From a virus: DNA of 38,174 nucleotides. The translations under genes were made by a program, and so were the position numbers. A model generated the notes under the pieces. It ran no database searches and was not told the DNA's origin. It saw only the letters and a program-made list of their open reading frames with translations. Shown piece by piece: positions 7,484 to 10,303 of the stretch. The stretch covers positions 1 to 38,174 of the IMG/VR virus record IMGVR_UViG_3300010430_000217; one strand, given 5' to 3'. Each line of letters opens with the position of its first letter. Within the stretch, counting starts at the first letter, position 1.

Positions 7484-7747
7484 CTAATAATTCAAATATT
7501 TTCTAATTATATCAATACCTTTGTCATAATCATTACTGTTAATTGGTTCTTTTGCATTATATTGAAAATAATTTATCATTATTCTTTTGCATTTAGAATA
7601 ATCAATACATTTTCCTGTGTTTCTTTTTATTTTATTTTGTTCTAATAATTTCACTAAATTTTCTTTATTAAATTCTGTATTGTTTAAATTATCTAAATTC
7701 CTATTCATATTTTCATTAAAATATTTATCTATCCAATTATTTTCCAT
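7484..7747 (-). CDS. Hypothetical protein (87 aa)
   Basis: 87 residues, Asn-rich helical N-terminus (WIDKYFNENMNRNLDNLNN) and a basic C-terminal half (CIDYSKCKRIMINYFQYNAK). Its ATG overlaps the helicase stop (TAATG), so it is translated from the helicase message. It has no recognised motif. Its place right after dnaB hints at a replication accessory, on position only. Confidence 0.7.
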   Translation of the reverse strand: MENNWIDKYFNENMNRNLDNLNNTEFNKENLVKLLEQNKIKRNTGKCIDYSKCKRIMINYFQYNAKEPINSNDYDKGIDIIRKYLNY

Positions 7748-9123
7748 TAAAAATCATCTCCCATTTTATTTTTAATATCAATATCACAAAATCTCATTCC
7801 TTTTTCTCCAATAAATTCACTAAAACAAGTTCCCAAAGAACCATTACGATTTTTTCTTATTATAATTTCAGCAATTTTATCATTTGAAAATGTATGTTTG
7901 CAATTATTATAATATACTTCCATATCTCTGCCTTTGTTATATTGTTCATCTCTATATAACATTAAAATTAAATCAGCATCTTGTTCTATTGCACCTGACT
8001 CTCTCAAATCTGACATTATCGGTCTTTTATCCTGTCTAATTTCTAATGCTCTTGATAATTGAGATAATACTAAATGAGCAGTATTGGTTTCATCTGCAAT
8101 AGATTTCATAACTGCTGATATTTTTGTTACTTCCTGTTGTCTGTTTCCATTAAATCTATTCATATATAATTTTTGAATATAATCTGTTGCAAATAATTTT
8201 ATTCCCAATGATTTTTTAACTCTTTTAGCTTTAACTAACATTTCATAAGGGTCAACTGTTTTACTATCATCAAAATGTATTGGTAAAACTTCTAAATCTG
8301 CTATTGCAGTATTATATTTAGTCCATTCATCTTCTGACATTTGCCCACTTTCTATTTTAGAAAAATTAATTCCTGATATCATTGCTATTAGTCTGATTGT
8401 TAATTTATAGTTAGGCATTTCTCTTGAAAATATATAAACAGGATTACCTTGTAATGCTGTTGCATAACATACCTTTAACATTAAAGATGTTTTACCCATT
8501 GAAGGTCGAGCCGCTAAAATTATCATATCTGAATTTTGAAAACCATTTGTTAATTTATTTAATTTTTTTAAACCTGTATTATATCCTGTTAATTTTCCTT
8601 TATTTTTAGATGCTTTTTCAACCATATCTAATACTAAACTTAATTCATTTTTTATAGAACTAAATTGATTATCTACAACATTTGCTCCTATGTTTATTAT
8701 ATCTCTTTCAGCTTTTGATATTATATCATTTGCATTTTCATTATCCATTGAACATTCTTTTAAAATTTCGTCTGTTTTCTTTATTAATTCTCGTTTAATA
8801 TATTTATCCTTAATAATATCCACATAAAATTTAAAGTTGTTAAAAGCTTCTCCATTGTTTATTAATTCTGTTAAATAAACTCCACCTGAAATTTCACTAA
8901 TATCATTTTTTTTTTGAAAACAATCTAAAACTGTAAATGTATCAATAGCAATATTATTTTTAAATAAATATAATATAGTTTGATATATTTTTTTGTTTTT
9001 ATCTGAATAAAAATAATCAGAATGTTGTAAATCATCAACTATTTCTGTTAGATTATCAGGATTAAAAAATATTGCCCCTAACAATGCTTTTTCGATTTCT
9101 ATATCATAAGGTAATTTAATCAT
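7747..9123 (-). CDS. dnaB: DnaB-family replicative helicase
   Basis: 458 residues from the ATG at 9123, which follows GGGGGAT and overlaps the upstream stop. The in-frame start at 9144 lies inside the previous gene. The N-terminal domain PYDIEIEKALLGAIF (residues 4-18) is DnaB-like. The RecA-like domain has Walker A PSMGKTS (207-213), the DnaB motif FSREMP, Walker B TDYIQKL (about 313) and LRESGAIEQDADLILML with an arginine-finger region. It forms a hexamer that unwinds DNA at the phage fork. The small protein just upstream is the likely loader. Confidence 0.95.
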   Translation of the reverse strand: MIKLPYDIEIEKALLGAIFFNPDNLTEIVDDLQHSDYFYSDKNKKIYQTILYLFKNNIAIDTFTVLDCFQKKNDISEISGGVYLTELINNGEAFNNFKFYVDIIKDKYIKRELIKKTDEILKECSMDNENANDIISKAERDIINIGANVVDNQFSSIKNELSLVLDMVEKASKNKGKLTGYNTGLKKLNKLTNGFQNSDMIILAARPSMGKTSLMLKVCYATALQGNPVYIFSREMPNYKLTIRLIAMISGINFSKIESGQMSEDEWTKYNTAIADLEVLPIHFDDSKTVDPYEMLVKAKRVKKSLGIKLFATDYIQKLYMNRFNGNRQQEVTKISAVMKSIADETNTAHLVLSQLSRALEIRQDKRPIMSDLRESGAIEQDADLILMLYRDEQYNKGRDMEVYYNNCKHTFSNDKIAEIIIRKNRNGSLGTCFSEFIGEKGMRFCDIDIKNKMGDDF

Positions 9124-9391
9124 CGTATAAATCCCCCATTTCATCTAAATTGATTACTGTTGTTGGTTGATTGTTATCATTATAATGCTTAATAAATTTA
9201 TTAGGTTTTGGAAAATGTTCTTCCGTTTGAATAATATGTTGTACTGCTATTTCAAAATTTTCATTATCTATATGTTGAACAGCCTCATAATAAATTCTTA
9301 AATATTCATTTGATAAATCTTTTGTTATTGCATTATGATTAAATATTAATTTTAATTTGTCTATTCCTTTTTTAAATTCTGTTTTAGTCAT
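9116..9391 (-). CDS. Putative helicase loader / G39P-position protein
   Basis: 91 residues. Helical N-terminus with LRIYYEAVQHIDNENFEIAV and then a turn, HFPKPNKFIKHY, similar in pattern to the small helicase-loader proteins of the SPP1 G39P type (repeat of helices ending in a Pro-rich FP-xP-xE/KF turn). An acidic flexible C-terminus (MGDLYDD) follows. It lies between the primosome-like gene and dnaB, overlapping both, which is the usual position of a loader. The assignment depends mainly on position and the FPKP motif. Confidence 0.5.
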   Translation of the reverse strand: MTKTEFKKGIDKLKLIFNHNAITKDLSNEYLRIYYEAVQHIDNENFEIAVQHIIQTEEHFPKPNKFIKHYNDNNQPTTVINLDEMGDLYDD

Positions 9392-10091
9392 TTAAAAATT
9401 CCTCCATTGCTTTATTGTAATTATCATTTGATTTTATATTATTATTTTTATTTGTAAAGTCTTTTTTATTTCTCATCCAAGTTTGTGATTGTAGTTTCCA
9501 ATTTTTTATTTTTTCCCCTTTTCTAAACCAATCAACAGCTCCATAATGATTATAAAATTTATATGCTTCTTCTTCAGGAAAATTTTTATCTTTAAAATAA
9601 GCTAAAATTTCTTGTATTACAGGTTCTTTAAATTTTTTAGTTTTTTTCTTCTTAACTTCTTTATTAATAATAATATCTTTATCCTTTTCTTTATCTTTAT
9701 CTTTATCTTTAACCCTTTCCTTGAGGTCTTTTAGACCTCTACAAGAAGTCAATTCTATTCCATTTGTTTTATACAAATTATATATAGATTTGTGTACTTT
9801 ATTATTTAAATTCATTTTAGTTCCATATTGGAAAATAAAAAAATCAGGCAAGAACCATTTCTTTTCATTTAATGGGATAATTCTTTCTTTATCAGAATTA
9901 AAATAATTTAAAGCATCTATTGAGTTCACTTTGACCTCGTATAGACGACAAAATAAGGTCAAATTAACCTTAAATATTCCTGAATGGTCGCAATTATCTT
10001 TTAAATAAAACCAAAATAATTTATAATCTATTGGAATATCAATAAACCAATCTTGCTTCCATATTTCTGTATCTGTAAATCTTTTAGCCAT
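9384..10091 (-). CDS. Phage replication-initiator / DnaD-like replisome organiser
   Basis: 235 residues. The N-terminal part (FTDTEIWKQDWFIDI, FYLKDNCDHSGIFKVNLTLF) is the winged-helix seen in many phage replisome organisers. A charged linker with five KD/EKD repeats (DNA at about 9681-9712) precedes a C-terminal motif, FYNHYGAVDWFRKGEKIKNW, that recurs in phage initiators. It should bind the origin and bring the helicase-loader pair encoded next in the operon. The SD AATAGGAGTAG precedes the ATG. A structured RNA unit lies just upstream. The family call is strong in pattern, though the exact group is uncertain. Confidence 0.75.
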   Translation of the reverse strand: MAKRFTDTEIWKQDWFIDIPIDYKLFWFYLKDNCDHSGIFKVNLTLFCRLYEVKVNSIDALNYFNSDKERIIPLNEKKWFLPDFFIFQYGTKMNLNNKVHKSIYNLYKTNGIELTSCRGLKDLKERVKDKDKDKEKDKDIIINKEVKKKKTKKFKEPVIQEILAYFKDKNFPEEEAYKFYNHYGAVDWFRKGEKIKNWKLQSQTWMRNKKDFTNKNNNIKSNDNYNKAMEEFLND

Positions 10092-10141
10092 TACACACTA
10101 CTCCTATTAATAATTTTATTATTTTTAATTTGATTGGGTAT

Positions 10142-10208
10142 AAAAAATGCGTCCGAGTAGGTGTGATAGTAAAGAACCTGATTGGTTACTTTTGTATCCT
10201 CGAACGCA
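10142..10208 (-). terminator. Terminator-like stem with U6 tract
   Basis: Ten-base stem TGCGTTCGAG / CTCGGACGCA (one wobble) followed immediately by six U. The 41-base loop is long for an intrinsic terminator but contains its own hairpin. It lies 51 bases before the replication-initiator start codon. Confidence 0.5.
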
Positions 10209-10269
10209 ATATTATTTAATTTAATTTTTTTCATAATAATCAATCATAAATTCTAAACTATAACACCTA
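10142..10269 (-). ncRNA. Candidate ~128-nt pseudoknotted small RNA (or attenuator) upstream of replication operon
   Basis: Starting at the predicted transcription start, TAGGTGTTATAGT (10269-10257) pairs with ACTATCACACCTA (10170-10158), 12 of 13 positions. TGCGTTCGAG (10208-10199) pairs with CTCGGACGCA (10157-10148) with one G-U. The two 3' arms abut, so the helices interlock as a long H-type pseudoknot. An extra hairpin AAAG(T)AACC/GGTTCTTT lies at 10192-10171. TTTTTT (10147-10142) follows directly, as in an intrinsic terminator. The unit therefore has promoter, structured body and terminator, like an independent sRNA. Alternatively it attenuates the replication operon. It matches no family I know. 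Confidence 0.65.
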
Positions 10270-10274
10270 TTAAT

Positions 10275-10303
10275 ATAATACACCATAACAAAAAAAAAGT
10301 CAA
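10275..10303 (-). promoter_or_regulatory. Sigma-70-type promoter of the pseudoknot RNA
   Basis: TTGACT (10303-10298), 17-base spacer, TATTAT (10280-10275). The start predicted near 10269-10268 coincides with the first paired base of the RNA structure. It lies just after the end of the upstream HTH gene (stop at 10318). Confidence 0.75.

What the first reader, a model, noticed from the sequence alone, without database searches (positions are those of the whole stretch)
10142..10303. Undescribed promoter-pseudoknot-terminator RNA unit before the replication operon
Near-consensus promoter (TTGACT-17-TATTAT). The transcript starts with TAGGTGTTATAGT, which pairs 12/13 with ACTATCACACCTA. A second helix TGCGTTCGAG/CTCGGACGCA interlocks with it so that both 3' arms abut. 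A local hairpin AAAG(T)AACC/GGTTCTTT fills the interval, and six U follow. A ~128-nt RNA with two long interlocked helices and its own start and end looks like a dedicated sRNA, an attenuator sensing something before the replication genes, or an anti-defence decoy. I recognise no known family.
Basis: partly seen in the sequence, partly recalled or inferred. Interest (0 to 1): 0.85.

Follow-up and report, generated by a model that had tools for sequence, protein, structure and literature searches.

The report
RNA switch before phage replication genes
A short stretch of RNA with two interlocked helices and a stop signal sits just before the DNA-replication genes of this phage and, with almost no shared sequence but the same architecture, of many other uncultured phages; it looks like a previously undescribed switch that uses translation of a tiny leader gene to decide whether replication genes are made.

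Summary
The promoter, both interlocked helices (A/A', B/B'), the inner hairpin and the U-run are at the stated places; 0 of 3000 dinucleotide shuffles score as well. Upstream of homologous replication genes in metagenomic phages the same order (promoter, A, B, A', B', U-run) recurs in about 35-49 sequence clusters, strongly enriched over other T-runs of the same contigs. In near-identical relatives the A/A' loops change together through four variants. A' lies in the loop of a hairpin nested inside the terminator stem. In relatives this leader ORF recurs with unrelated peptides, stopping at the next gene's start. One near-identical element precedes several replication-initiator families. No Rfam family matches. 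Most likely it is a cis-acting, translation-gated transcription attenuator of the replication operon, working like P4, IsrK and RepZ/Tap leader controls but a member of none. A trans-acting RNA of the P4 CI kind is not excluded. No RNA has been measured.

The parts
10275..10303 (-). sigma70-like promoter TTGACT-17-TATTAT
   Evidence: read; promoter-like sites lie within 40 nt 5' of A in 15 of 35 independent elements against 4.1% of random positions
10257..10269 (-). arm A (TAGGTGTTATAGT), at the predicted transcript 5' end
   Evidence: 12/13 complementary to A'; A+B score above all 3000 shuffles
10091..10234 (-). leader ORF, 47 codons, MKKIKLNNIAFEDTKVTNQVLYYHTYSDAFFIPNQIKNNKIINRSSV*; stop overlaps next start (TAATG)
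   Evidence: no family match; equivalent ORFs in relatives
10199..10208 (-). arm B, 5' half of terminator stem (TGCGTTCGAG)
10171..10192 (-). inner hairpin H (AAAG(T)AACC / GGTTCTTT), nested in B/B' just 5' of A'
10158..10170 (-). arm A' (ACTATCACACCTA)
10148..10157 (-). arm B', 3' half of terminator stem (CTCGGACGCA), abuts A'
10142..10147 (-). U-run of the intrinsic terminator; the predicted short RNA ends here or in the few bases after
   Evidence: end not measured
9384..10091 (-). first operon gene, replication-initiator-like protein (MAKRFTDTEIW..., 235 aa, phrog_15768); own AGGAG upstream
   Evidence: a relative (L503 product) matches phrog_678 'replication initiation O-like'
7747..9144 (-). 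DnaB-like replicative helicase, same operon

Best explanation
It is the leader of the phage's replication operon and acts in cis as a translation-gated transcription attenuator. RNA polymerase starts at about 10269 and makes A, then the start of a short leader ORF, then B, the inner hairpin with A', and B' followed by a U-run. If ribosomes load on the leader ORF early, they follow the polymerase, keep B and A' from pairing, and the polymerase reads through; the ribosome then ends at the TAATG junction and helps start the replication gene. If translation is slow or blocked, A pairs with A' (closing the leader's ribosome-binding region) and B pairs with B', so transcription ends at the U-run and the replication genes stay off, leaving a short inert RNA that has no stop codon in the leader frame. 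Shown by sequence and comparison: the conserved order of parts, pairing and covariation in relatives, promoter placement, leader ORF and its coupled stop, and association with replication initiators. Inferred: termination and read-through, the role of the ribosome, and the signal that sets the switch (unknown).
For: Same architecture in 35-49 sequence clusters. Structure hits with an ATG-started, coupled leader ORF: 28 of 2059 T-runs upstream of the replication gene against 3 of 17,688 elsewhere. Frames that carry a leader ATG stop within -10..+15 nt of the next start codon in 21 of 33 cases against 7 of 51 for frames without one (Fisher p = 3e-6), and the ATG lies a median 20 nt before B. Peptides are unrelated and even the frame differs between near-identical elements, so ribosome passage rather than the product seems to be what is kept. 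Loop pairs GUGAAAC/GUUUCAC, GUAGAAA/UUUCUAC, GUGAAAA/UUUUCAC, GUAAGAA/UUCUUAC. Pair count on 14 distinct sequences: 98% of cells paired (20-47% when slid), 13 double changes against 4.0 in shuffles, 0/500 shuffles as high. A' core unpaired in the inner fold 81% against 45% for the rest. Promoters just 5' of A in 15/35 against 4.1% background. Near-identical elements lie in front of different initiator or primosomal families (phrog_16167, 1408, 9327, 270, 678), an SNF2-like helicase or HNH genes, joined at a conserved ATGA.
Against: No transcript, termination or read-through has been measured. In the window the leader ATG has no clear Shine-Dalgarno and the replication gene has its own AGGAG, so coupling may be weak there. 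Some members have no long ATG leader ORF (L091, L059, L300, L315, L151) or stop earlier (L168, L018, L470). A purely cis attenuator does not obviously need the A/A' contact. One G1 member (L490) has partly mismatched loops, although it looks like a recombinant. Two placements away from the replication gene (L109, L074) show that the element is not tied to replication genes alone.
Confidence: 0.5

Rival explanations
1. A trans-acting control RNA. The short terminated RNA accumulates and its loops (A or A') pair with the complementary loop of newly made leader RNA of the same or an incoming phage, forcing early termination or blocking the leader's translation, as CI RNA does in satellite phage P4. 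It would limit replication-gene expression and could give heteroimmunity groups.
For: A and A' are presented as loops and swap in concert between near-identical elements, as kissing-loop specificity determinants do in plasmid incompatibility (PMC10724649). The unit has its own promoter and terminator and lies before replication genes, as P4 CI/seqA does (described in PMC4825925).
Against: Intramolecular pairing explains the covariation just as well. In the G1 family the linker and upstream DNA vary more than the loops, so there is no sign of loop-specific diversification. No integrase among the 30 window proteins scanned, and the gene family is rare in sampled cellular genomes, so lysogenic immunity is not an obvious need.
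Confidence: 0.25
2. A stand-alone structured RNA (sRNA or protein-binding RNA) whose job is unrelated to the next gene; the leader ORF is incidental.
For: RNA structure is better conserved than the ORF. The ORF frame differs between near-identical G1 members, and a few elements lack it.
Against: The leader stop sits at the next start codon far more often than in other frames (21/33 against 7/51). The element keeps the position directly before replication genes while the genes themselves change.
Confidence: 0.12
3. An ordinary small protein gene of 47 codons at the head of the operon; the pairing is a by-product.
For: An open frame with a TAATG overlap to the next gene.
Against: No homologue in families or in the related loci. 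Peptides differ completely in relatives while the pairing persists. In L301/L304 two base pairs of A/A' are swapped by compensatory changes at the cost of an amino-acid change.
Confidence: 0.08
4. Chance inverted repeats in AT-rich DNA, or an RNA decoy against host defence.
For: 26% GC sequence makes AU pairing easy.
Against: 0/3000 shuffles; strong positional enrichment; covariation. Nothing found links it to defence.
Confidence: 0.05

Closest known systems
P4 satellite phage immunity (CI RNA with seqA/seqC)
   Same: Leader RNA with internal complementary segments, premature transcription termination that keeps replication genes off (as described in PMC4825925; P4 details otherwise from memory)
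   Different: Here the complementary segments form an intramolecular pseudoknot around a single intrinsic terminator; no processed CI-like RNA or lysogeny shown; a leader ORF runs through the structure
IsrK / orf45 / anrP of Gifsy-1 prophage (PMC4825925)
   Same: Own promoter, short terminated RNA versus read-through mRNA, short ORF whose nucleotides but not amino acids are conserved, AUGA overlap and translational coupling to the next gene
   Different: In IsrK the terminator lies before orf45 and the sRNA activates translation in trans; here the terminator lies inside the leader ORF and the gene controlled is a replication initiator; no Rfam match
RepZ (ColIb-P9) and RepA/Tap (R1) plasmid replication control
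   Same: Leader peptide translation coupled to the replication initiator; pseudoknot or kissing loops; small loop changes set specificity (PMC10724649 and the titles it cites; details from memory)
   Different: Those use an antisense RNA from the opposite strand and no intrinsic terminator in the leader; no antisense transcript identified here
pT181-type attenuation of plasmid rep genes
   Same: Conditional terminator in the leader of a replication initiator (cited in PMC10724649; otherwise from memory)
   Different: Antisense-driven; different architecture
thiS / HMP-PP riboswitch with terminator-embedded aptamer (PMC6478431, title and abstract only)
   Same: A regulatory structure embedded in an intrinsic terminator
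   Different: No conserved ligand-pocket sequence seen here; association is with replication genes

Membership tests
Any Rfam 15 family (including IsrK, C4) | match at or above gathering score | tested here: not met
   none in the window or 16 related loci; at relaxed thresholds only chance-level matches
P4-type CI immunity | complementary leader segments in front of replication genes | tested here: met
   A/A' before replication-initiator genes
P4-type CI immunity | processed trans-acting CI RNA pairing with two sites and conferring immunity | not testable with these tools
   needs RNA mapping and superinfection tests
Translation-coupled leader (RepY/RepZ, Tap/RepA kind) | short ORF ending at the initiator start codon | tested here: met
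   TAATG in the window; 21/33 against 7/51 in other frames
RepZ / Tap antisense control | countertranscript from the opposite strand against the leader | not tested
   no opposite-strand promoter scan was run on the leader
Transcription attenuator | intrinsic terminator between promoter and regulated genes | tested here: met
   B/B' plus U-run; recurs in relatives
Transcription attenuator | regulated read-through | not testable with these tools
   needs reporter or RNA-seq data
Conserved small protein family | conserved amino-acid sequence | tested here: not met

The most novel reading that the evidence does not exclude
A widespread, undescribed phage RNA in which two mutually complementary loops, one at the transcript's 5' end and one inside a terminator, work in trans between co-infecting or successive genomes, as plasmid incompatibility RNAs do. 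The loop sequence would define exclusion groups for replication, and the cassette would be passed between phages with unrelated replication initiators.
Probability: 0.2. Interest if true: 0.9.

Novelty: new variant of a known kind. Interest (0 to 1): 0.78.

Why it matters
It would be a new RNA control class at the step where a phage commits to DNA replication, found in many uncultured phages with both sigma70-type and Bacteroidota-type promoters, and easy to miss because only topology, not sequence, is conserved. It puts translation, transcription termination and replication start in one 120-nt cassette, and the switching loop pairs give a direct, testable prediction about specificity. Sequence-based RNA family searches do not see it.

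Tried and rejected
DNA similarity of the region to named phages: none. Rfam at gathering and relaxed thresholds: none. Named or deposited phages with related replication proteins (Pan5, P12026, Tyrion, psageB2, F10, pCB2047-C and one unnamed): no convincing element upstream. The replication protein gave one hit among named phages and none among plasmids. Cellular genomes: few copies of the gene family, and none of the 12 loci checked had a convincing element. Loop-specific diversifying selection was considered and not supported, because linker and upstream DNA vary more; B and H conservation in that family is biased by the search pattern. Covariation of the window's own arms could not be tested for lack of intermediate relatives. 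Papers: six of eight searches aimed at such a phage RNA, none described it. An antisense promoter on the opposite strand was not scanned for.

Full report
What is in the window. The window is a 38-kb, 26% GC virus record with terminase, portal, capsid and tape-measure genes and no integrase among the 30 proteins scanned. Keeping the T-run and shuffling the rest, none of 3000 sequences reached the observed pairing score.

A 47-codon ORF starts at 10234, between A and B, crosses every 3' element of the structure and ends TAATG on the replication gene. It has no homologue in Pfam, PHROGs or the first set of related loci. This raised the dull possibility that the 'RNA' is just a small gene, so relatives were needed. 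The only close relative found is 99.99% identical and uninformative.

Relatives share the architecture, not the sequence. Homologues of the replication protein were collected from viral contigs. Reading the DNA in front of their start codons showed, in sequences with no similarity to each other, the same order: promoter, A, start codon, B, A', B', U-run, next gene. With a fixed scoring script, T-runs near the replication gene score 50 or more in 10 of 104 cases against 32 of 10,780 at other T-runs of the same contigs, and 60 or more in 5 of 104 against 2 of 10,780; the best 'null' hits were further copies a few hundred bases upstream. With 293 distinct loci, 64 elements at score 44 or more (a score that gives 10 points for a promoter) fell into 49 sequence clusters; the weakest of these include chance hits. 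A stricter choice that uses structure alone gives 35 independent elements, 15 of which have a sigma70- or Bacteroidota-type promoter within 40 nt 5' of A, against 4.1% of random positions.

The pairing is under selection. In a family of near-identical elements (31 contigs, found by a 19-base pattern inside the element) the seven-base A/A' pair exists as GTAGAAA/TTTCTAC, GTGAAAC/GTTTCAC, GTGAAAA/TTTTCAC and GTAAGAA/TTCTTAC, always complementary except for one partly mismatched, recombinant-looking member (L490) and a six-of-seven variant. On 14 distinct sequences the three helices are paired in 98% of cells, against 20-47% when slid by 1-3 bases, with 13 double changes against 4.0 expected (the innermost three A/A' pairs were left out because of an alignment gap). 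Other pairs of close relatives show the same: L301/L304, L421/L075/L439, L481/L473. In many members A also sits in a small 5' hairpin loop, and A' sits in the loop of the hairpin nested in the terminator: A' bases are unpaired in the local fold in 81% of cases against 45% for the rest. The interaction is then a loop-loop pseudoknot.

The leader ORF is a recurring part, the peptide is not. Among independent elements the last ATG lies a median 20 nt before B. Frames that hold such an ATG stop within -10..+15 nt of the next gene's start in 21 of 33 cases, against 7 of 51 frames without one (Fisher p = 3e-6). Typical junctions are ATGA or TAATG. Over whole contigs, structure hits with such a coupled ATG ORF number 28 of 2059 near the replication gene and 3 of 17,688 elsewhere. 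Yet the peptides are unrelated, and within the near-identical family even the reading frame over the conserved RNA differs. What is kept appears to be ribosome traffic through the structure.

It belongs to replication control. In the near-identical families the same element is joined, at a conserved ATGA, to different first genes: the window's initiator family, a DUF1376/primosomal type, two further initiator types (phrog_16167/1408 and phrog_270), an unclassified MNWINIQT type, an SNF2-like helicase, HNH endonucleases or small ORFs. The cassette has therefore probably been recombined between phages as a unit while staying at the head of the replication operon. Two look-alikes lie elsewhere (L109 near 236, L074 near 7270).

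Mechanism. The simplest account is a translation-gated attenuator: a ribosome on the leader ORF prevents B/B' and A/A' and allows read-through and coupled initiation; without it, A/A' closes the leader's initiation region and B/B' ends transcription. The anatomy, covariation and coupling are shown; termination, read-through and the controlling signal are inferred. The main rival is a trans-acting RNA using the same loops.

Comparison. The closest working parallels are P4 CI/seqA and IsrK-orf45-anrP, the second with the same 'nucleotides conserved, amino acids not, AUGA overlap' signature (PMC4825925), and plasmid initiator control by kissing loops and leader peptides (PMC10724649). None is met in full: no antisense transcript, processed RNA or immunity has been shown, and no Rfam model matches. 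No paper found in six topic-directed searches describes it, and no convincing copy was found in the seven named or deposited phage records checked or the twelve cellular-genome loci checked, so it appears so far to be a feature of uncultured phages.

Noticed in passing
L503, L008, L011, L071 and most relatives of window:9384-10091(-): The replication-initiator family carries a long KDKDKD...E repeat linker between its N- and C-terminal domains, of varying length between close relatives.
   Followed up: no
L485-L515: One near-identical RNA cassette precedes several unrelated first genes, always joined at ATGA, which suggests frequent recombination at the cassette edge.
   Followed up: partly
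L490:9677-9777: Natural chimera: the A loop of one type and the A' loop of another (two A/A' positions no longer Watson-Crick), a ready-made test of whether the loops must match.
   Followed up: no
L074 near 7270, L109 near 236: Elements of the same architecture away from the replication gene; the L074 one lies before a 211-aa gene.
   Followed up: partly
L122, L125, L130, L137 upstream of the replication gene: A different recurring two-hairpin arrangement (CCTAG...CTAGG hairpin followed by a GGGGAG/CTCCCC terminator), possibly a second class of leader RNA.
   Followed up: no
window:10649-11800(-) and window:3926-4957(-): Two DNA methyltransferases of different kinds in one small phage, one directly in the early region before the element.
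   Followed up: no
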